This document shows positions 20,613-33,267 of a stretch of DNA of 56,547 bases, piece after piece. The DNA comes from Verrucomicrobiales bacterium (GTDB lineage: Bacteria > Verrucomicrobiota > Verrucomicrobiia > Limisphaerales > UBA9464), in assembly GCA_005805505.1 (NCBI GenBank), contig SYMJ01000129.1, forward strand, positions 1-56,547, written 5' to 3'. Position numbers and translations under genes: made by a program. The notes under the pieces were generated by a model. It saw nothing but the letters and a program-made list of their open reading frames with translations, ran no database searches and was not told the DNA's origin. Each line of letters begins with the position of its first letter. Within the stretch, counting starts at the first letter, position 1.

Positions 20613-21617
20613 TCAGGACTTTGGGACTTTGGGATAATTCTTCACGAGGGCCTGGGCAGTCTCGCGGAGGATGGTCACCAGCTCGGGCGGACTGAGCACG
20701 GTGGCTTGGGCCCCCCAACCCAAAATCCATCGGCTAATTTCCTCAAGGCTTCCCAGCCGGAGATGGATCTCCACCCCGCGGTCGGGAAGTTCAGTCAGCG
20801 TCTGCGAGGGATGCCACCGCTTCTCGCGAATGTAGTCGGCCACGGCCCGCGTGAAGCAGATGCGGACTTCGAAGTCTCCGGTGCGCGAGTACACGCCGAA
20901 GCTGTCGCTCAAATGCCGTTCTAACGCGAATTTGGCCGGGCGCTGGAAGGTCTTTCCGGTCGGTTCAGCTTCGGCAATCCTGGAAGGCACAAAGGTTCGG
21001 ATGGCCTTTCGAAGATGGTCGTGCGCGAAGAGGTACCAGTCTCCGTTCACATTGCCGATGTGGTAAGGATCTACGGTGCGCTCCTCGAGGGCCGCCCCGG
21101 GCTTGCGGTAGGTCAGGCGGAGGGTCTTGCCGGCTGCGGCGGCCTGGGCCAGCCGATCAATGATCCCGAGGTCTACGTTGGGCTCGGCGGTGGTTCGGAA
21201 GGAAATGGTTTGCGTCCATTCGGCTAGATTCAGAGAGACGGTGTCCGGCAGCGAACGCTCGAGTTTCTTGAAAGCGGTGAGGAGGCGTTTTTCGAAAGGG
21301 GTGCCGCGGTATTGCTGAAGCGCCTTCTCAGCGACCACCAACGCGAAGAGCTCTCCCTCCGTGATTTGTAGGGTCGGGAATGAATCCACCGGTTCGGTGT
21401 AGTAGAATCCATAACGCTGGGCACTGTATTCGATGGGCAAACCCATCCGGTCGCGCATGAAATCGATATCCCGCTGGATGGTCTTGGTGCTCACCTCAAA
21501 CTCGCGGCTGAGGAACGAAGCATTGGGATGCTTGCCCGATGCAATGGCGGTGTGGATGCGCATCATCCGCTCCAACGGCGGTCGGGACATGGGCATCTCG
21601 CGCACGCTCTTCTTCAT
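20613..21617 (-). CDS. HTH + WYL domain transcriptional regulator
   Basis: N-terminal HTH (FLSREFEVSTKTIQRDIDFMRDRMGLPIEY) and WYL-type region (VDPYHIGNVNGDWYLFAHDHLRKAIRTFVPSRI). Confidence 0.87.
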   Translation of the reverse strand: MKKSVREMPMSRPPLERMMRIHTAIASGKHPNASFLSREFEVSTKTIQRDIDFMRDRMGLPIEYSAQRYGFYYTEPVDSFPTLQITEGELFALVVAEKALQQYRGTPFEKRLLTAFKKLERSLPDTVSLNLAEWTQTISFRTTAEPNVDLGIIDRLAQAAAAGKTLRLTYRKPGAALEERTVDPYHIGNVNGDWYLFAHDHLRKAIRTFVPSRIAEAEPTGKTFQRPAKFALERHLSDSFGVYSRTGDFEVRICFTRAVADYIREKRWHPSQTLTELPDRGVEIHLRLGSLEEISRWILGWGAQATVLSPPELVTILRETAQALVKNYPKVPKS

Positions 21618-21743
21618 GGAGAAATACTGTTCTCAGACGGCAGGAATGCCAACTCCGGACCAGCCATGGTTCGATCGCGGAACGCGCAGTTCGTCGCGCT
21701 TTGCGCTTTTGTCTCGTGGCACCCCAGTCTTCCAATTCACCTC

Positions 21744-23582
21744 ATGAGGGATCCGGAGTCCAAAACGGTAATCGGTATCGAATGTGGCGGCACTCGCACC
21801 GTGGCCTTGGCGGCGGTGGTGGGAGGCAGAGCGTCGTTGGCCCGGATCGAATCCGGACCGGCTAATTTGCGGCTGACTTCGGACTTGGATTTACAGTCCC
21901 ACTTTGACTCCCTGAAATCCCGTCTGCCGGAACCGGTGGCCATCGGCATCGGCATGGCTGGAGTGAGGACCGAAGAAGATCGGCAACGGTTGCGCGCCTG
22001 CGTGGCGAGGGTCTGGCCGTCCGTGCCGGTCCGCGTCGACCACGACCTGGTGAGCGCGCTCGAGGCAGCCTCCTTGGATGCCACAAATTCGGTGGATGCA
22101 CGGGTGATCCTCTTGAGCGGCACGGGTTCGTGCTGCTTTGGACGGAATCGACGGGGAGTGACGGCCAAAGCCGGCGGATGGGGACACCAGTTGGGGGATC
22201 AGGGCAGCGGTTTTGCCATCGCTTACGCCGGATTGCGTGAGGCCATCCGTCAGCTCGAACAGACCGGCCGTATCGGTGCCCTCGGTCGCCGACTTCTCAA
22301 GGCTTCTGGCCTCAAAGACCCCGAAGCCTGGGTGGGCTGGATGCAGTCGGCTTCCAAGCGTGAGGTCGCCGCTTTGGCGCCGGAGGTGTTCGCGGCGGCG
22401 GCTCACGGCGACTCGAGAGCTCACCAGGTCATCGAGCGGTGCCTGGGCGAGTTGCTCGAGTTGGCCTTGGTCTGTGCCGCACGATTGGACCGGACGGGCA
22501 AGGCTCGGGTAGAATTTGTGTTGGCGGGCAGTGTCTTCTTGCGTCAACCGCGATGGCTCCCGCACATCGAGAGCGTTCTTCGGGCGGTGCGACCCCAGTC
22601 CGTGATCCGATCCTTGGAACGGGAATCGGCCTGGGGTGCGGTGGTCCTCGCGGAGCAGGCCTTGGCCTCAGGCGAACGCTCTCAGGTGCCCACAGTCCTA
22701 CCCCCGGGTGTGGCGGTCCCTCCACCCGTTCCGCGTCCTGAAGCGACTGGGGTTTCCCCGACGGAGCAGCGGAACCCGCGTTCCCGGCATCTTGACCGGA
22801 TGCCTGTGAGCAAGGCCATCGACTTAATGTTGTCTGAAGACTCACAGGTCCCCGAGATCATCGGCCGGCACCGGGTGGCCTTGGCACGATTGATCCGCCT
22901 TGCCGAGGTTGCCATCCGCAGCGGTGGGCGGCTGATTTATCTGGGCGCCGGCACCAGCGGCCGCCTCGGAGTCTTGGACGCCAGCGAATGTCCGCCCACC
23001 TTTCGGACTCCGCCCGAGTGGGTTCAGGGTATTATGGCTGGCGGCGAGAAGGCTCTGCACACTTCGGTGGAAGGCGCTGAAGACGACGCCGGGGCAGGGT
23101 ATGAAGCCCTTCGTCTCCGTCAGGTTTCCTCAAAGGATGTGGTGGTGGGCATCGCTGCTTCTGGAAGGACCCCTTATGTCTGGGGAGGATTGGCCGCCGC
23201 CCGTGAAGCCGGAGCTCGAACGGCGTTGCTCTGCTTTAATCCGAACCTAAAATTCACCCGAAGCCTCCGGCCGGATGTTGTCCTGGCCATCGACGTCGGC
23301 CCTGAGGTGCTCACTGGGTCGACCCGACTTAAGGCCGGCACCGCCACTAAGCTCGTCCTGAACATCCTCAGCACCCTCACCATGGTTCGCCTCGGCAAGG
23401 TCGAAGAAAACCTGATGATCGACCTCAACCCCTCCAACGTGAAACTGCGCGATCGGGCTCTCCGCATCGTCCAAGAATTGACCCGCGTCGCCCCCGAAGT
23501 CGCCCAGACCGCCCTGGAAGTCTCCGGTTGGCAGGTCCAGGCCGCCGTTCAGACTCTCCGCCAAACGCGTTCCCACCGTTGA
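21744..23582 (+). CDS. murQ: Bifunctional protein: BadF-type N-acetylhexosamine kinase fused to N-acetylmuramic acid 6-phosphate etherase (MurQ)
   Basis: N-terminal ASKHA kinase (IGIECGGTRTVALAAVV, LSGTGSCCFGR, GGWGHQLGDQGSGFAIA); C-terminal MurQ SIS domain (IYLGAGTSGRLGVLDASECPPTF, VEGAEDD, GIAASGRTPYVWGGL, KVEENLMIDLNPSNVKLRDRALRI). Start MRDPESKTVIG at 21744. Confidence 0.9.
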   Translation: MRDPESKTVIGIECGGTRTVALAAVVGGRASLARIESGPANLRLTSDLDLQSHFDSLKSRLPEPVAIGIGMAGVRTEEDRQRLRACVARVWPSVPVRVDHDLVSALEAASLDATNSVDARVILLSGTGSCCFGRNRRGVTAKAGGWGHQLGDQGSGFAIAYAGLREAIRQLEQTGRIGALGRRLLKASGLKDPEAWVGWMQSASKREVAALAPEVFAAAAHGDSRAHQVIERCLGELLELALVCAARLDRTGKARVEFVLAGSVFLRQPRWLPHIESVLRAVRPQSVIRSLERESAWGAVVLAEQALASGERSQVPTVLPPGVAVPPPVPRPEATGVSPTEQRNPRSRHLDRMPVSKAIDLMLSEDSQVPEIIGRHRVALARLIRLAEVAIRSGGRLIYLGAGTSGRLGVLDASECPPTFRTPPEWVQGIMAGGEKALHTSVEGAEDDAGAGYEALRLRQVSSKDVVVGIAASGRTPYVWGGLAAAREAGARTALLCFNPNLKFTRSLRPDVVLAIDVGPEVLTGSTRLKAGTATKLVLNILSTLTMVRLGKVEENLMIDLNPSNVKLRDRALRIVQELTRVAPEVAQTALEVSGWQVQAAVQTLRQTRSHR

Positions 23583-23741: not shown

Positions 23742-24518
23742 ATGAATTCCACGGTCATAAATGGTTTGGCGATCGGGCTGCTGGTCAGCTTCGGTATGGT
23801 GATCGGCATCGCCATCGTCTTTGCCACGTTGTACCGGCGTCACCTTCGGGCACTGCGGCTGACTCAGCGCTGGATGGATCCACTCACGCCCCTCGTCGGT
23901 TCCAGCAGATCTGTGCTGACCCTGCCGCTGCCCAACCGCTGGTTGGCTATCCGCAGCTCCAACACCGCGTTTCTTCGCGAGATGCTGCACATCGAGCCTG
24001 GCGAGGGTTCCCCATGGTCCGAGGCTCTGGTGCGGTTTCGCGAACGGGTGATATTCATTTCGCCGCCCTGGCGCGGTTGGTCACTGGTGGTCGGTGCGGC
24101 CATCCCGGACCCCGCCGCGGATATCGATCAACTCTACCGGTTTCTCTCTCGCCTGAGCCGAGAGGTCGGCGAAGTTCAGTTTTTCTCCGCGGACCGCGTT
24201 CTCAATCACCATGCTTGGGCTTGGCTCCGGGAGGGCAACGTGGTTCGAGCTTATGCCTGGGCCGGTGAGACCTTGTGGAATCAGGGGAATTGGACCTTTG
24301 ACGAACGACTCTTGGGCCTCACCTGCCACGATTATGGAGAAGTCGTCGAAGGCCCCGGTATTTGCGGAGGTCCCTCCGAACAGCAGAATGCCGAGAGAGT
24401 GGCGTTGCTGGCGCGTCGTTGGAGCCTAGATCCGGCCGAGGCCAGCGCTTACTTTCTTGCTCTGGAGGCCTCCTCCCGCGTTCGCCGCGAGGGTCCCGAC
24501 GCCGCCGATGGAGCGTAA
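23742..24518 (+). CDS. Hypothetical protein with N-terminal TM helix
   Basis: 258-aa ORF with one strong N-terminal TM segment; no family recognised. Confidence 0.65.
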   Translation: MNSTVINGLAIGLLVSFGMVIGIAIVFATLYRRHLRALRLTQRWMDPLTPLVGSSRSVLTLPLPNRWLAIRSSNTAFLREMLHIEPGEGSPWSEALVRFRERVIFISPPWRGWSLVVGAAIPDPAADIDQLYRFLSRLSREVGEVQFFSADRVLNHHAWAWLREGNVVRAYAWAGETLWNQGNWTFDERLLGLTCHDYGEVVEGPGICGGPSEQQNAERVALLARRWSLDPAEASAYFLALEASSRVRREGPDAADGA

Positions 24519-24632: not shown

Positions 24633-27600
24633 ATGAACTGTTCCATTGGACTGAATCCATCCAACCCCACCGAACTCCATCGGCACATCAACCTGAAACT
24701 GGCCGAGTTAGGCATGACAGGCGTTCCGTTGTTCGGTGAAACTCAGGCGGTGGACTCACAGCTCGAGAGCTTCATCGCCCAGGGCCGCGAGAAGGACCGA
24801 CTGCTTTGCCGTCATGCCAGTCCGGTGGACCGCAGGATTAACAACTTCATCCACGACTATTTGTCCGACACGGCCGTCCCCCGGGAATTGCCTCGGAACA
24901 CCTTCGTCTTGGATCAGTATGGCCTGGCCCGGGTCTTGTCCCTGCCACCCGACAAAGACGAAGTCGCCTCGCCGATGCTGCGCAGCTATCGGTTGCGCAA
25001 CGGGATTCTTCACAATCCGAAGTCGGACCGGCGCACTACCTCCGGCATCTTCCATGTCACCGAGGGAGGGTTGCCCATTCCCGATGACAAGAAGGGTGTC
25101 CCCAAAACGGTTTTTGCCGACCTTCTGGCCCGCGCGCTTCATCCTCCTGAGGAACTTCTGCAACTGCCGTTCACGGCGTCGGGGCCCACGCCGGCCCCGT
25201 GCATGGTCTCTCTGCTCATTCGCCCGGTCATCTGCCCGGAGGTTCCGGGCGTGATGCCTCGCAAGAGCATGGAAATTCGTTTCTTCGTCCCCGGATCGCT
25301 GGTGGCCAATCTCGATTTTGTCGAGAGCATCTTCGGCAATGCCGGCGACCCGTTGCTCCCAGAAAATGACGCCTCCCTCGATGCCGAGCATTGGAGCGGA
25401 CACACCGGATGCGTGATCTTGGCTCCGCACCTGAATGGACTCACAAAGAAGGAAGTGGGACTTCCGCATCGGGACGAGGCCAGCGAGCGTCAGCGTCGAG
25501 ACGGCATGTGTTGGAGCGACGCGCGGGAGCTCTATAACGACGGGAACGCCTTCAAACTGACCGCGCGGGATGCCTCCGGGGTGATAGTGACACTCATCTC
25601 GGACAACTACTTCGGTTACTGCAAAAAGGAGGTCAAAACCCAAATCAGTTTTGCGGCCAACCTCTTCGGACTGGTCGAGGAGGAGCACGCCGGCGGAGCG
25701 TTGGTCTTCGCTAATCACGATCTGGGCAGCGAATACGACGCCCAACAGCACCGCGCTGATTTCCCGTACAGTTTTTCGGAAGTCACTCGGTTAATTCCGG
25801 ATGCACTAAATCTTCAGCCCGAAGGTCATGCCGTGGACCGGCAATTTCCAACGGTGGTCTACGTCCCTGAGAATGCCCGCTTCGAAATCGAGTCCCTGAC
25901 GGTTCGCTGGGATGAGGCCGGCAAAACTCAGTCGATCCGACTCCGGCGGGACCATCACTACCTGATGCCCAGCGGATTTCGGGTCCACCTGGAGCCTCCG
26001 GCCATGGCAGCGCGGGCTTGGCGTCTGGTCGGAACACGCCCGGAGGGCACCCTGTGTCACAAGCCCTGCACGGTCTCTGGCGGCGGCAAGAGCGAGATCT
26101 CCAAGCCCATCACCGACGCCATCCTCTTCGGCTCGGTCTTCGTCGCAGACCTGGCACAAGATTTCGATCGAGTGGCTATTGTCGTGGCTCGCGACTTTTC
26201 CCAACGGTTTCGCGATCCCGCCCGCAATGGCGTGGACCAGCGGCCCATTCTCAATCCGAGTCGAACTCTCGGTTCTGTCATCAAGCTCCTGACACCGAGC
26301 GAAGATTTTTCCCACGAACACAATGCCTGGATCAGTTCCGTGCCGCCGCACATCCGGGAATTGGTGCTCGTTGTGAAACGCTTTTGGCAACCCTCTTGGG
26401 GAGAGGACTGGCGCTCGCAGTTCAGCGTCGATGTCATCAACGGCACCCCTGCCAATGAGCTGCGGCTGGGGCGCAAGCGATTGGTGACCCAATTCCTTCG
26501 GGTGGGTTATGACGACGATGGAGCCTGGCGGACTTTCGGTCTTCGGAAAGATTACCTTCCGGCCTTCAAGCTTCAGATGGAGGACGACATTACGGCCAGT
26601 GTGACCGTGCCGCGCAGCCAACTGCCAGGCCTGGACCCGCAGAGCGTTTATCCGTCGCTCAAATTCGTTCAGAACAGTGAGTTTCGACTTTTCCAGCGGC
26701 CGGACGACGCCATTCATCGCGGGTATGACAAGGCCGCTGAAGCAGACTTTGCTGGCGGCGGATGCTTCTTCAGCAACTACGAACCCATCTCACGCAAGCA
26801 GGCCAGAGAGTTGGTCGATGATGCCATCGGACTGAACCAATACACTGCGCCCATGCGGGCGCTGATCGAAGCGGCCGCGGCCTCAGAGCCGGGCGATGGT
26901 TCTCCCGAATGGATCGTTGTTACGTCTCATCCTCGAATAGTGGATGGCAAACCCTCGAAGAACCCTCGGTATCTTCAGACGCGTCCCGATCTCCTCGATA
27001 ACCTGGGGCGTCATCTGACGACCATGTCGGCCCGACTGGCGCGGCGCTTGGCGACCGATCGTCCGGTGTATACGCCGGTGCATGCCGTCTTGGCTGGTCG
27101 TCGGAATAACCCGGCGGAACCTGGAGTGCGTCCGCTGGCGTGCTATGGGCCCATCCACCATATGGAGTTGCCGGAGGCGTTCATGGAGTTCATCTCCAGC
27201 ATGACCGGCAAGTCCCCGTCGACGACCGGGGTCGGCAGCGAGGGAGCCTTGACCAAGGGACCTTTCAACGCCCTGCCGCCCATTTACGATCTCAATGCGG
27301 CCTTCGTGAGTTTGGCCGTCTCCGAGAATCCGGTTTTCTTGACGAGTGCCGGATATCTCGGGCCTAAAACCCGCGTGGATCATGATGTCAGCCTGCTCGT
27401 GCCGGAGGTCTGGTGTCGGATGGGCGTCACGGAGCGGGATCCGGCTTTCCTCATCGCCAATGGCTATCTGGAGCGCGTGTCGGACTTCACCCACGAGGGG
27501 CGGACCGTCCCGGCCAGTCGCCTGGGGTGGCGAGTCACACTGAAGTTCGTGAACGACTTCCTGGGGCGTGTCTTTAACCATCCTCACGCCGTCTTGGTAG

Positions 27601-28073
27601 AGAGCATGTTGCGACCTGAGATGCAGGATGCGGGGCAATATGCCGATTCGGTGGACAACATCGCGGCGACTCATCGACGAGTGGCGCAGCATTACTTCGA
27701 CGACGGTTCCATTCACCAGGCCGTGCCACCACTCCAGGCTCTTCTTCACATTATGCGTGATGGAGCCAGCGAAGGACTTCGCCTCGAGGACCCGGCCTTC
27801 CGAGCGATGTTCAATCGGGAGAGTGTCCTCGTGAGTCCTTGGTACCGCGCCCGGTTGGAGATGCGGCGCGAGTTGGAAGTGCGTCACTGGAACACCATTG
27901 TCACCTCTATCGATCGGTTGATCGGTCGGACGGAGTATGAGCAGGAAGCGGAGCGATTGGGCCTGCACGAACGTCGGTCCTACGCCCGTGTGATGCTGGA
28001 GCGCAGTCGCTTCGAACAGCGCGTCGGAGAACTGACCGGGACAATCGGAGCCGAACCGGCGGTTTATCGGTAA
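24633..28073 (+). CDS. Putative PPi-type phosphoenolpyruvate carboxykinase (PEPCK superfamily, large form)
   Basis: 1146 aa, in the size range of PPi-PEPCKs. ISDNYFGYCKKEVKTQISFAANLFGL resembles the PEPCK [23 protein letters not shown] block and CTVSGGGKSEISKP resembles the P-loop GLSGTGKTTLS, but no classical ATP/GTP-type signature is present. Confidence 0.65.
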   Translation: MNCSIGLNPSNPTELHRHINLKLAELGMTGVPLFGETQAVDSQLESFIAQGREKDRLLCRHASPVDRRINNFIHDYLSDTAVPRELPRNTFVLDQYGLARVLSLPPDKDEVASPMLRSYRLRNGILHNPKSDRRTTSGIFHVTEGGLPIPDDKKGVPKTVFADLLARALHPPEELLQLPFTASGPTPAPCMVSLLIRPVICPEVPGVMPRKSMEIRFFVPGSLVANLDFVESIFGNAGDPLLPENDASLDAEHWSGHTGCVILAPHLNGLTKKEVGLPHRDEASERQRRDGMCWSDARELYNDGNAFKLTARDASGVIVTLISDNYFGYCKKEVKTQISFAANLFGLVEEEHAGGALVFANHDLGSEYDAQQHRADFPYSFSEVTRLIPDALNLQPEGHAVDRQFPTVVYVPENARFEIESLTVRWDEAGKTQSIRLRRDHHYLMPSGFRVHLEPPAMAARAWRLVGTRPEGTLCHKPCTVSGGGKSEISKPITDAILFGSVFVADLAQDFDRVAIVVARDFSQRFRDPARNGVDQRPILNPSRTLGSVIKLLTPSEDFSHEHNAWISSVPPHIRELVLVVKRFWQPSWGEDWRSQFSVDVINGTPANELRLGRKRLVTQFLRVGYDDDGAWRTFGLRKDYLPAFKLQMEDDITASVTVPRSQLPGLDPQSVYPSLKFVQNSEFRLFQRPDDAIHRGYDKAAEADFAGGGCFFSNYEPISRKQARELVDDAIGLNQYTAPMRALIEAAAASEPGDGSPEWIVVTSHPRIVDGKPSKNPRYLQTRPDLLDNLGRHLTTMSARLARRLATDRPVYTPVHAVLAGRRNNPAEPGVRPLACYGPIHHMELPEAFMEFISSMTGKSPSTTGVGSEGALTKGPFNALPPIYDLNAAFVSLAVSENPVFLTSAGYLGPKTRVDHDVSLLVPEVWCRMGVTERDPAFLIANGYLERVSDFTHEGRTVPASRLGWRVTLKFVNDFLGRVFNHPHAVLVESMLRPEMQDAGQYADSVDNIAATHRRVAQHYFDDGSIHQAVPPLQALLHIMRDGASEGLRLEDPAFRAMFNRESVLVSPWYRARLEMRRELEVRHWNTIVTSIDRLIGRTEYEQEAERLGLHERRSYARVMLERSRFEQRVGELTGTIGAEPAVYR

Positions 28074-28189: not shown

Positions 28190-29635
28190 CTAGGCCAAGA
28201 TATTCCGCACCACTTGCCCGTGGACATCGGTGAGGCGGAAATCGCGACCGGCATTGTGGAAGGTCAGCTTCTCATGGTCGAAGCCGAGGCAGTGCAGGAT
28301 TGTGGCTTGGAGGTCATGCACATGGACCGGGTTTTCAACCACGTGGAATCCCAAGTCGTCGGTGGCCCCATGGCTCATGCCGGCCCGGATCCCTCCACCG
28401 GCCATCCAGACACTGTAGGCTTGAGGGTGATGATCCCGCCCCTGGCTCCGGCCCAGAGCCGGGTTGGATTCGACCATCGGAGTGCGACCAAACTCACCAC
28501 CCCAGATCACCAGTGTGTCGTCCAACAATCCCCGCTGCTTCAGATCGAGCACCAACGCAGCGCTGGCCTGGTCGGTGATCGCTGCATTGCTGCGGACATT
28601 GCCGACCACGTCGGAGTGGGCGTCCCAGCCTTCGTGGTACAAGTTCACGAAGCGGACTCCGCGCTCGATCATCCGCCGGGCCAGCAGACACGCTCGGGCG
28701 AAGGAGGGCTTGGCTGGGTCGCACCCGTACATCTTCAAGGTCTCCGGGGATTCCCCGCGCAAGTCCATAAGTTCTGGGGCTGAAGTCTGGAGCCGGAACG
28801 CCATTTCGTAGGAGGCGATTCGGGTGGCGATTTCCGGATCTCCCACGGTGCCCAATCGCTTTTGGTTTAAATCGGCGACGAGGTCGAGCGTGTCACGCTG
28901 GAGACGGGTATCGATGCCGGCTGGGTTGTCGACGTTCAGGATGGGCGGGCCTTGGTTGCGCAGGCGCACTCCGGTGTGGACCGTCGGAAGGAACCCGCTG
29001 GACCAGAGAGCCGCCCCTCCGCTCAGGCCACCCCCTGTGCTCATGACGACGAAGGCAGGCAAATTCTGGGACTCGGATCCGAGACCGTAGATCACCCAGG
29101 AACCCAGGCTCGGGCGGCCGGGTTGGGAGAATCCGGTGTTGAAGAAAATCTGCGCTGGAGCGTGGTTGAATTGGTCGGTGCGTACGGAACGAATCAGGCA
29201 GATGTCATCGACGATCTTCCCCAGATGCGGGAGGACCTCCGAGATTTCCGTTCCGGATTGGCCATGACGAGCGAATTTGAAGCGGGGACCGAGCACGGCG
29301 GCATCGGGCCGGATGAAGGCGTAGCGCTGACCGCCGATGACCGAGGGCGGTAGCGGGCGCCCCTCCAGCTTCGCTAACTCCGGCTTGAAATCGAAGAGTT
29401 CCAGCTGACTAGGAGCCCCACCCATGAAGAGGTGGATCACCCGCTTGGCCCGGCCGGGGAAATGCGGGGATTTGGCCGTCGCGGCCGGGGTGCCTGCCAG
29501 AGGCGAGGCCGAGAGAGAGTTGCCCCAGCGATCGGTGAGCAATCCAGCCAAGGCGATCTTGCCCAAGCCCACGCCGCAGTTTTTGAAGAAATGCCGTCGG
29601 CTGACGTGATGCGGGTGAAGGTTCAAAGGATTCAT
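28190..29635 (-). CDS. DUF1501 domain-containing protein (Tat-type signal)
   Basis: VSRRHFFKNCGVGLGKIALAGLL leader; KRVIHLFMGGAPSQLELFDFKPEL; VIWGGEFGRTPMVESNPALGRSQGRDHHPQAYSVWMAGGGI. Confidence 0.92.
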   Translation of the reverse strand: MNPLNLHPHHVSRRHFFKNCGVGLGKIALAGLLTDRWGNSLSASPLAGTPAATAKSPHFPGRAKRVIHLFMGGAPSQLELFDFKPELAKLEGRPLPPSVIGGQRYAFIRPDAAVLGPRFKFARHGQSGTEISEVLPHLGKIVDDICLIRSVRTDQFNHAPAQIFFNTGFSQPGRPSLGSWVIYGLGSESQNLPAFVVMSTGGGLSGGAALWSSGFLPTVHTGVRLRNQGPPILNVDNPAGIDTRLQRDTLDLVADLNQKRLGTVGDPEIATRIASYEMAFRLQTSAPELMDLRGESPETLKMYGCDPAKPSFARACLLARRMIERGVRFVNLYHEGWDAHSDVVGNVRSNAAITDQASAALVLDLKQRGLLDDTLVIWGGEFGRTPMVESNPALGRSQGRDHHPQAYSVWMAGGGIRAGMSHGATDDLGFHVVENPVHVHDLQATILHCLGFDHEKLTFHNAGRDFRLTDVHGQVVRNILA

Positions 29636-29655
29636 GGGAGGGTGGGGATGAGTTT

Positions 29656-32600
29656 TCAGCCCTTGGTGATCATTTCATCGAGGTTGAACAGGGCCCGTGA
29701 CAGGGCCGACCAGGCGGCGCGTTCTTCGATGGAAGAACCCTCACCGGGTCCGGCCACCGCGGCCGCATCCAACTCATGAGCCTGGAAACGCTGGAGTTGG
29801 TTTTTCCAGAAAGTTTCGAGGGCATGAAGCTCGGTTTCGGTTGGGGGGCGAGTCATGCAGCGTTGAAATGCGTTCTGGATGCGTTGGGACACCGTTCCCG
29901 ATTGCCGGGCCAGGTCTCGACCCATGGCCTGGGAGACCTCAATGAAGAAGACGTCATTGAGCAGAGTGAGCGCCTGCAGGGGGGTGTTGGAGGTCTCGCG
30001 CCGGGCGATGCAGGATTCACCAGTGGGGGCATCGAAGGTGTTGAATAGGGCAAAGGGAGCCGTCCGCTTGGCGAAGGTGTAGAGGCTGCGACGGTAGCGG
30101 TTCTGACCCTCGCTGGTCGGCCAAGACGATCCGCCCCACGCGGCCTCCATGACCCCGGAAGGCTGGGGCGGGTACACCCCAGGCCCGCCCATGGCGTCCG
30201 AGAGTAGCCCGCTGGCCTTGAGAGCGGCATCGCGTATGACCTCCGCATCGAGGCGAACCGAGGGTCCGCGGGAGAGCCAGCGATTGTCCGGGTCGCGGGC
30301 CAGTGAGTCCGGCCGGGTTCGCGAGGACTGCCGGTAGGTGGCGCTCAGGGCGATTTGCTTATGAAGTCGCTTGAGAGACCAACCGTTTCGCATGAAATCC
30401 ATGGCCAACCAATCGAGCAGCTCGGGATGGCTGGGGCTGTCTCCTTGATAGCCGAAGTCCTCTGAGGTTCGAACCAAACCCTTGCCGAAGAAGGCCTGCC
30501 ACTGGCGATTGACGGTGACTCGCGCCGTCAGGGGATTGTTGGTGGATACGAGCCACCGTGCCAGGCCGAGGCGGTTGCGGGGTAGCTCGGCCGGAAATGG
30601 GGAGATGACCGAGAGGACACCGGGTTCCACGCGTTCGGCGGGCTGAAGGTATTCGCCGCGGCGGTGGAGGAAGGTAGGGCGAGGGTTCTCCGGTGGGCGC
30701 TCTTTCAAGACTAGGGTGGTCTTCGGAGTCAGGGGTTGTCGCAGTTGGGCGATGCGTTTCTGCGACTCGGCCAGTTCTGGAGTGGTCAAGAGGAAGTGAC
30801 GGCGGAGTCGGGCTCTCTGAGATTCGGCCAGCGAGGCGTCCGGCGCGATGAGCAAGGGTTCCAGTTCTGCGGGAAGATCCCGCGCGGAGGCTCCACCCGG
30901 GTGGGTGGTGACCGAAATCCGGAAACGTCCCAGAGAACAGGCGTAGTGCCGCCCAAAGAGCAGGGAAAGCTTGAGGTCGGCATTGCCCAGGATTGGCGCC
31001 TCGGGAATAAAGACCGCCTCATGCCGCTGGCCCTCGCGGCCCGCGGTGGACCAGCCGGTTTGCGGGTCGCCATCGACAGCCAACGCCGCCGTGGCCTCAG
31101 ATCCGAAGGCGTTTTTACCGAAGCTTTGCGAGGAGGACTTCCAGCGGACGGGCTGGCCGCCTGCGCTGAGGCTCAATTCGCCCAGAAAGAAATCTCCCTT
31201 CGGACCTTCATAATAGGCCAGGCCCGGCCCGTTCTTGGGCAGTCGCGGATCGGGCAGAACTTCCAATCGGACGGCGGTGATGGGTTCGGGCGGCGCGGTG
31301 AAAGCGAGTTGGTAGGTGTCACTCTTGCTGATGTCGCCGCTGGCAAAGACCGAGGCGTCTTCTTGGACGGTGAGCAGCGGGAGGTTGGAGGTCGCGGCCG
31401 TCGGACGCAGGGGAGTCCAACGGATGGCCGTCTCTCGCGCTTTGCCGAGCCATTTTTGGAATGCAGCCTCTGCGGCGGCCTTGCGCCGTTCCGCCAAGGG
31501 GCGAGGATCGGAGGTCGGTCGGCCCAAGCGAATCCGGGGACGGCCGATCAGGTGTTGAGCGGCCTGCTGGTGTTCCAGAGTGATTTCGAAGCGGATGCCC
31601 GAGGGAAAGGCGACCTCCTTCTGAAACTGGACACTGAGGTGGTGTTCCCGGTTAAGCCGGTCGCCACCCACGTCGACAGCCCAACCGGTTTGGAGTTGGT
31701 CATCAATGGCATTGGCCGCCGGAAAGCCCGACTGCTCTACGTCGGATTGGGCATGGGCAAGAGCGATCTTTTGAACCTGATCCGGGGCATCCAGCGGCGC
31801 GGCCGAAACCCGCAGTTCACTCAGGACGAAGTTTCCATGAGCCACGCGTCCGGGTCCTTTTTTGGGGAGAGCTTCGTCGAGCAGGGTTTCCAAGCGGAGT
31901 CGGTCGATGTGGGTGTCCCGCGTGGTCACGACGAGAGTGAGGGTGTCGGTGTCTGGCGGCGTTCCGGTGAAGAGGGCTGAGTGATCTTTGAGAGCGCTCA
32001 CGGGCGATCCCTTCAGGGACCGGGCCTCGATTAGGGTGGGAGTGAACCACACGGTTTCTTCGATTGGGAACCGCTCTGCCAGGGTTGCTGTCAGGGCCTC
32101 TGCTTCGGCCAATCGGGCCTGATGGCGCGCCTCTTCAGAAGGCTCCACGAGGTCCATGTCGGGTTCGTCGGCATTGTTCAGGAAGGCCATCAACTGATAA
32201 TACTCCCGGTGCGGGATAGGGTCGTATTTGTGAGTGTGGCATTGGGCACACCCGACGGTGAGACCCAACCACGTGGTGCCAGTGGTGGCTACCCGATCGG
32301 TCATGGCATGGAAACGGAACTCGAGCGGATCGATCCCGCCCTCTTCATTGAGCATGGTGTTCCGGTGGAAACCGGTGGCGATGCGCTGGTCCGGCGTGGC
32401 GTTGGGCAGGAGGTCCCCCGCGAGTTGTTCCAGAGTGAACTGGTCGAAGGGCATGTCGGCATTGAGAGAGCGAATTACCCAATCGCGCCAAGGCCAGATG
32501 CTTCGGGTGCGATCCTTTTCGTACCCGTTGGTGTCGGCGTAGCGGGCCAGATCCATCCAGCGTCGGCCCCAGCGTTCACCGTAGCGAGGGGAAGCCAAGA

Positions 32601-33267
32601 GTTGGTCCACCCAGTGTTCGTAGCCTGCGTCGCTGGGGTCCTTCAAAAAGGCTTCTACTTCGGCGGGGGTGGGAGGCAGGCCTGTCAGGTCGAGAGAGAC
32701 GCGGCGAGCCAGGGCGTGCGGGTCGGCCGCTTCGGCAGGAGCAACTCCGTGTTGCTGCAATCGTTGGAGCACGAATTGATCGATCGCGTTGCGTGCCCAC
32801 GAGGTGTTATCGACCTGGGGAGGTGTTACAAATTTGGGTCGCTGGAAGGCCCAGTGAGGGACGTACTCGGCACCGGCGGCGATCCAAGCCTCCAGGGTCT
32901 TCTTTTCTTTGTCCGTTAGCGGCTGCCGGGTGCTCGGCGGTGGCATTACCTCGTCCGGGTCTCGGGAATGAATCCGAGTTACGAGCTCGCTGGAGTGAGG
33001 TTTGCCGGGGACCAGTGCCACCGCTCCAGATTTGGCGGGTTGGAGGGCCGCATCGCGGACATCAAGACGCAGGTTGCTCTTGCGCGACAGGTCGTCGGGT
33101 CCGTGGCATTTGAAGCAATGCTGGGAGAGGATCGGTCGGACCTCAGTGGAAAAATCGGGGCCGCCCGTTGGGCTTGCTGCCAGGTTAAGACACAGGCTCA
33201 GAGCCAGTGCGGCCCGCGCAATCCACCCACAGAGGGATCCCGGTTTTGACAGTCGGCGATGTTCCAC
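29656..33267 (-). CDS. PSD1 / planctomycete-type cytochrome C domain protein (DUF1549 + DUF1553)
   Basis: [31 protein letters not shown] heme site; [22 protein letters not shown] (DUF1549); [57 protein letters not shown] (DUF1553). Upstream of and co-directional with the DUF1501 gene. Confidence 0.92.

What the first reader, a model, noticed from the sequence alone, without database searches (positions are those of the whole stretch)
24633..28073. Giant PEPCK-superfamily protein, likely a PPi-type phosphoenolpyruvate carboxykinase
Seen: a 1146-aa ORF with two blocks in PEPCK order: NYFGYCKKEVKTQISFAANLFGL (compare E. coli [21 protein letters not shown]) and CTVSGGGKSEISKP (compare GLSGTGKTTLS). 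Established: PPi-dependent PEPCKs (Entamoeba, Propionibacterium) are about twice the length of ATP/GTP enzymes and are often annotated as hypothetical. Inference: this bacterium may interconvert PEP and oxaloacetate with pyrophosphate, changing the energetics of glycolysis/gluconeogenesis.
Basis: partly seen in the sequence, partly recalled or inferred. Interest (0 to 1): 0.7.

Follow-up and report, generated by a model that had tools for sequence, protein, structure and literature searches.

The report
Pyrophosphate-type PEP carboxykinase in a verrucomicrobium
The large gene encodes a pyrophosphate-using phosphoenolpyruvate carboxykinase, a known but usually unlabelled enzyme that moves carbon between sugar breakdown and the citric-acid cycle using pyrophosphate/phosphate instead of ATP or GTP; here it is a well-conserved new member in Verrucomicrobiota, not a new kind of enzyme.

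Summary
The 1146-aa ORF (24633-28073, +) is real. It matches the two solved PPi-dependent PEPCKs over its full length: 6k31 AiPEPCK (1237 bits) and 8e1u from Propionibacterium (1228 bits). An AlphaFold2 model (pLDDT 86.5, pTM 0.86) overlays 8e1u with TM 0.92, and more weakly ATP-PEPCKs including E. coli's (target TM 0.5-0.6). Pfam and NCBIfam gave no match. The gene is under strong purifying selection (dN/dS 0.05-0.09) and present in 68 of 96 related genomes. The host is an uncultured verrucomicrobium (genome 79.6% complete).

One correction matters for physiology: the genome also carries an ordinary GTP-PEPCK, PPDK fragments and pyruvate kinase. The only PFK found is PPi-type. No family-I soluble or H+-pumping pyrophosphatase was found. 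So this enzyme is probably an additional, reversible PPi-linked PEP/oxaloacetate step. In 8 of 42 carriers at least 90% complete, it is the only PEPCK detected. PPi-type PEPCK is already annotated in Planctomycetes. New member of a known family; interest is modest.

The parts
24633..28073 (+). PPi-dependent phosphoenolpyruvate carboxykinase (EC 4.1.1.38 predicted), 1146 aa
   Evidence: phmmer vs PDB 6k31 and 8e1u, 1237 and 1228 bits, full length; Foldseek TM 0.92 to 8e1u; 41-sequence alignment
25605..25673 (+). block NYFGYCKKEVKTQISFAANLFGL (residues 325-347): Y326 and K332 at the same 6-residue spacing as in ATP-PEPCK; H352 (25686-25688) follows 20 residues after K332, as in GTP-PEPCK (20) and ATP-PEPCK (19)
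   Evidence: assignment of roles is by spacing and homology, not by superposed coordinates
26067..26108 (+). P-loop block CTVSGGGKSEISKP (residues 479-492), counterpart of SGTGKT/SACGKT in ATP/GTP-PEPCK
   Evidence: S482-S487 invariant in 41 homologues, TVSGGGKSEISK identical in 6k31/8e1u; hhalign local hit to the ATP-PEPCK P-loop
27195..27257 (+). conserved block SSMTGKSPSTTGVGSEGALTK (residues 855-875), nearly identical in both solved PPi-PEPCKs; low model confidence at 858-874, so perhaps a mobile loop
23742..24518 (+). 258-aa protein of unknown function directly upstream (114-base gap), one N-terminal helix that looks membrane-spanning; neighbour of the PPi-PEPCK gene throughout the genus. 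Possibly co-transcribed; not shown to be part of the system

Best explanation
The protein is a PPi-dependent PEP carboxykinase (PEP carboxytransphosphorylase, EC 4.1.1.38). It reversibly catalyses oxaloacetate + PPi <-> PEP + CO2 + Pi with divalent metal. A PEPCK-type core carrying the Tyr/Lys-Lys/His metal-substrate site and a GGGKS P-loop is enlarged by family-specific insertions. In this verrucomicrobium it most likely works as a reversible, PPi-linked anaplerotic/cataplerotic valve beside a GTP-PEPCK. In the carboxylating direction it would make PPi that can feed the PPi-type phosphofructokinase; in the other it would spend biosynthetic PPi for gluconeogenesis. Shown: family, fold, conserved motifs, purifying selection, presence of the other genes. 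Inferred: PPi as phosphoryl carrier for this protein (from characterised relatives), residue roles, and net direction in the cell.
For: Full-length matches to 6k31 (AiPEPCK, 1237 bits) and 8e1u (PPi-dependent PEPCK, 1228 bits), and with a profile 1654 and 1630 bits, with no other PDB sequence up to E=10. AF2 model pLDDT 86.5, pTM 0.86; Foldseek TM 0.92/0.94 to 8e1u at about 50% identity, then 6k31, then ATP-PEPCKs with E about 1e-6 to 1e-4 and target TM mostly 0.5-0.6. Active-site blocks largely identical in the two solved enzymes and invariant in 41 homologues. Lys-to-His spacing of 20 matches the genome's own GTP-PEPCK (20) and ATP-PEPCK (19). dN/dS 0.05-0.09. The only PFK found is the NCBIfam PPi-PFK subfamily, 519.9 bits against cut-off 273. 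Literature: PPi-PEPCK activity and reversibility inferred in a methanotroph extract (PMC6860931); proposed PPi-supplying role in Propionibacterium and Entamoeba (PMC8863071).
Against: No assay exists for this protein or, as far as I could find, any verrucomicrobial one. The Asp metal ligand and the oxaloacetate-binding Arg could not be assigned, since no coordinates were available; the candidate D506 is Asp in 34 of 41 homologues (N in 5, G and H in 1 each). A GTP-PEPCK in the same genome makes its physiological share uncertain. Direction of flux is not testable from sequence.
Confidence: 0.93

Rival explanations
1. It belongs to the PPi-PEPCK family by descent but has changed donor (ATP/GTP) or function (for instance a regulatory role), the GTP-PEPCK doing the metabolic work.
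For: GTP-PEPCK is present in 55 of the 68 relatives that carry this gene; no experimental data on the verrucomicrobial clade.
Against: About 50% identity to solved PPi enzymes with the family-wide blocks intact; dN/dS 0.05-0.09; 8 genomes at least 90% complete have it as the only PEPCK found, which fits a catalytic role.
Confidence: 0.05
2. It is an ATP- or GTP-type PEPCK with extra domains.
For: Shared fold and motif spacing.
Against: No Pfam PEPCK_ATP or PEPCK_GTP match and about 1% profile-profile probability, versus over 1200 bits to PPi-PEPCK. The genome's GTP-PEPCK is a separate 594-aa gene with the standard model.
Confidence: 0.01
3. A rival about direction, not identity: in the cell the enzyme runs mainly as a gluconeogenic, PPi-consuming step rather than an anaplerotic, PPi-making step.
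For: No family-I soluble PPase (PF00719) and no H+-PPase found in the incomplete genome, so biosynthetic PPi would need a sink.
Against: A GTP-PEPCK is present that could serve gluconeogenesis; PEPC was not found in this genome, leaving anaplerosis without that enzyme; published proposals favour PPi supply (PMC8863071).
Confidence: 0.35

Closest known systems
Propionibacterium freudenreichii PPi-dependent PEPCK (PDB 8e1u)
   Same: Full-length homology, about 50% identity, TM 0.92, same active-site blocks
   Different: Different phylum; no assay for the verrucomicrobial protein
AiPEPCK, PPi-PEPCK (PDB 6k31; Actinomyces israelii, organism from memory)
   Same: 1237 bits over residues 39-1143, 51% identity in the structural alignment, TM 0.89
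   Different: Different phylum; no assay for the verrucomicrobial protein
PPi-type PEPCK annotated in Planctomycetes (Rosistilla, PMC7716947)
   Same: Same enzyme name in a related phylum, listed with PPDK and PPi-PFK
   Different: Those genomes also list ATP-PEPCK, PEPC and pyruvate carboxylase; this genome has GTP-PEPCK, and no ATP-PEPCK or PEPC was found. Sequences were not compared
ATP-dependent PEPCK (E. coli 1os1, 1ayl)
   Same: Shared fold core (target TM about 0.53, E about 1e-6) and motif order KK...His...P-loop
   Different: Half the length; no detectable sequence-profile similarity; ATP donor
GTP-dependent PEPCK, including the one in this genome (L031)
   Same: Same reaction class; same Lys-to-His spacing of 20
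   Different: 594 aa, own NCBIfam family NF003253, GTP donor

Membership tests
PPi-dependent PEPCK (EC 4.1.1.38) | Full-length sequence homology to solved members, about 1130-1150 aa | tested here: met
PPi-dependent PEPCK (EC 4.1.1.38) | Overall fold as in 6k31/8e1u | tested here: met
   AF2 model TM 0.89-0.92
PPi-dependent PEPCK (EC 4.1.1.38) | GYCKKEVKTQIS and TVSGGGKSEISK blocks | tested here: met
   identical in both solved members; invariant or nearly so in 41 homologues
PPi-dependent PEPCK (EC 4.1.1.38) | Metal ligands Lys, His, Asp | tested here: inconclusive
   K332 and H352 invariant with the right spacing; the Asp ligand could be D495 or D506 and cannot be fixed without coordinates
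PPi-dependent PEPCK (EC 4.1.1.38) | Oxaloacetate/PEP-binding Arg | tested here: inconclusive
   many invariant Arg (for example R197, R216, R312, R689, R824) but none assigned structurally
PPi-dependent PEPCK (EC 4.1.1.38) | Uses PPi/Pi, not ATP/GTP | not testable with these tools
   needs enzyme assay
PPi-dependent PEPCK (EC 4.1.1.38) | Homodimer (PMC10441589 citing Chiba 2019) | not tested
   no complex prediction made
ATP-dependent PEPCK | Match to Pfam PF01293 | tested here: not met
   also no PF01293 in the own genome
GTP-dependent PEPCK | Match to Pfam PF00821 / NF003253 | tested here: not met
   the genome's GTP-PEPCK is a separate gene

The most novel reading that the evidence does not exclude
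In this verrucomicrobial order, central metabolism is to a large extent pyrophosphate-linked: PPi-PEPCK, a PPi-type PFK and PPDK form a PPi-cycling set with no soluble pyrophosphatase draining it, and in some lineages PPi-PEPCK has replaced all nucleotide-dependent PEPCKs and PEPC, a situation reported for Entamoeba's PEPCKs, but here in free-living bacteria.
Probability: 0.2. Interest if true: 0.5.

Novelty: new member of a known kind. Interest (0 to 1): 0.22.

Why it matters
The Pfam and NCBIfam copies searched have no model that hits this protein, so automated annotation is likely to leave it unnamed. It is common in this verrucomicrobial order, and some near-complete genomes have it as the only detectable PEPCK. 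Metabolic models of these bacteria that assume ATP or GTP at this step, or that call the PEP-oxaloacetate link missing, would be wrong. It also gives many new sequences for a family with only two distinct solved sequences in the PDB copy searched.

Tried and rejected
Pfam and NCBIfam at E<=10: no hit; read as absence of a model, not absence of a family. Profile-profile comparison with verrucomicrobial GTP- and ATP-PEPCK: uninformative (1.5% and 0.9%), and the positive control was itself only 13%. Mutual exclusion of PPi- and GTP-PEPCK across relatives: not supported (Fisher P = 0.77 in all 96 genomes, 0.10 in order-level relatives at least 90% complete). An operon of PPi enzymes: neighbours are cytidylate kinase, a TIGR03790 protein, a HhH-GPD DNA glycosylase, a WYL regulator, a fused NagK-like/MurQ protein, DUF1501 and a DUF1549/DUF1553 cytochrome-domain protein, none PPi-related, and apart from the upstream 258-aa gene they are not kept even across the whole genus. 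Spread by phage or plasmid: no phage hit, one plasmid record (Persicobacter, 46.6% identity). Structure of the 258-aa upstream protein: weak model (pLDDT 70), no significant PDB match; a search of the viral structure library was started but not collected. Chiba 2015 and 2019 (the family's founding papers) are not in the library.

Full report
Observation. The ORF at 24633-28073 (+) is present as described, 1146 aa with no internal stop. A stop-free run of this length is not a chance event at this composition (probability about 4e-17), and the codon-position GC pattern is that of a coding sequence. Comparison with five relatives gives dN/dS of 0.05-0.09.

Identity. Pfam and NCBIfam return nothing even at E<=10. 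This is not evidence against PEPCK: a review notes that the PPi-dependent PEPCK has no InterPro family described (PMC8100219). A direct search of PDB sequences settles it. 6k31 (AiPEPCK) scores 1237 bits over query residues 39-1143, and 8e1u (PPi-dependent PEPCK) scores 1228 bits over 15-1143. A 41-sequence profile raises these to 1654 and 1630 bits and finds no other PDB sequence up to E=10.

Fold. AlphaFold2 on the 41-row alignment gives pLDDT 86.5 and pTM 0.86. Foldseek against the PDB ranks eight chains of 8e1u and two of 6k31 first (TM 0.89-0.92, 49-51% identity). ATP-PEPCKs of E. coli, Actinobacillus, Thermus and Trypanosoma follow with E about 1e-6 to 1e-4 and target TM mostly 0.5-0.6. 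GTP-PEPCKs of Mycobacterium and Corynebacterium are weaker (E 0.001-0.017, target TM 0.44-0.46). One review states that PPi enzymes are unrelated to the others (PMC8100219); another reports that later structures favour homology (PMC10441589). The fold search here agrees with the latter.

Residues. Y326, K331, K332, H352 and the P-loop S482-S487 are invariant in 41 homologues and identical in both solved enzymes. Tyr-to-Lys spacing (6) equals that of ATP-PEPCK. Lys-to-His spacing (20) equals that of the GTP-PEPCK in the same genome and is one more than in ATP-PEPCK (19). The distance from this His to the P-loop Lys is 134 residues here against 23-26 in the other two, so part of the extra length is inserted there. 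The Asp metal ligand and the substrate-binding Arg could not be assigned: D495 is invariant, D506 is Asp in 34 of 41. I had no coordinates to superpose.

Host and genome context. Named relatives are verrucomicrobial MAGs, whose isolate names suggest lakes and ponds for many. The window's genome is 3.62 Mb in 247 contigs and 79.6% complete. It also encodes a 594-aa GTP-PEPCK (NF003253, 881.9 bits), pyruvate kinase, fragments of PPDK (TIGR01828), and one PFK in the PPi-type subfamily NF010675 (519.9 bits, cut-off 273). ATP-PEPCK, PEPC, H+-pumping PPase and family-I soluble PPase were not found. With a fifth of the genome possibly missing, and family-II PPase not searched, these absences are weak.

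Distribution. 68 of 96 related genomes have the gene. GTP-PEPCK is in 79, and ATP-PEPCK is over the cut-off in 2. The two main types do not exclude one another. Eight genomes at least 90% complete have PPi-PEPCK and no detected GTP-PEPCK, ATP-PEPCK or PEPC. These are drafts, but they suggest that it can be the sole PEP-oxaloacetate enzyme of these types. A few of the GTP-PEPCK 'positives' (G071, G075, G090) rest on fragments only.

Neighbourhood. Within the genus members checked, the gene is preceded by a 258-aa protein with one probable membrane helix and no family match. This pair persists in members where the other neighbours have changed, but the protein was not found near PPi-PEPCK outside the genus. 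No functional claim is made for it.

Mechanism. From the family, the reaction is OAA + PPi <-> PEP + CO2 + Pi, reversible. Reversibility was inferred for a methanotroph PPi-PEPCK in cell extract (PMC6860931). PPi supply by this enzyme has been proposed for Entamoeba and Propionibacterium (PMC8863071). Together with a PPi-type PFK this supports a PPi-linked valve at the PEP-oxaloacetate node. The direction is inference, at about 0.6 for anaplerotic/PPi-making against 0.35 for gluconeogenic/PPi-consuming.

Novelty. PPi-type PEPCK is an established enzyme with two solved sequences, and it is already listed in genome descriptions of Planctomycetes (PMC7716947). I found no paper on a verrucomicrobial one in the open library searched, but the two founding papers were not readable, so I do not claim a first report. 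This is a new member of a known kind.

Noticed in passing
23742-24518 (+): 258-aa protein with one probable N-terminal membrane helix and no Pfam/NCBIfam match, directly upstream of the PPi-PEPCK gene in the genus members checked (54-96% identity) even where other neighbours differ; not found beside PPi-PEPCK outside the genus. Model weak, no PDB match.
   Followed up: partly
21528-23582 (+): Apparent fusion of a BadF/N-acetylglucosamine-kinase-like domain with N-acetylmuramic acid 6-phosphate etherase (MurQ) in one ORF.
   Followed up: no
L035:1213-2532 (G000:C73): The only PFK found in the genome belongs to the PPi-dependent subfamily NF010675 and carries GGNDS and PKTIDND motifs.
   Followed up: partly
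G009:C163:3896-7299 (genus relative): The PPi-PEPCK of G009 reads as two overlapping pieces in different frames (residues 2-556 and 562-1146), probably a frameshift in the assembly or gene.
   Followed up: no
G072 and G091 (related genomes, 95% and 90% complete): Neither PPi-, GTP- nor ATP-PEPCK nor PEPC detected, so the PEP-oxaloacetate link there is unexplained.
   Followed up: no
28190-33267 (-): DUF1501 plus PSCyt1/DUF1549/DUF1553 gene pair next to the PPi-PEPCK gene, present beside it in the closest relatives but not in more distant ones.
   Followed up: no
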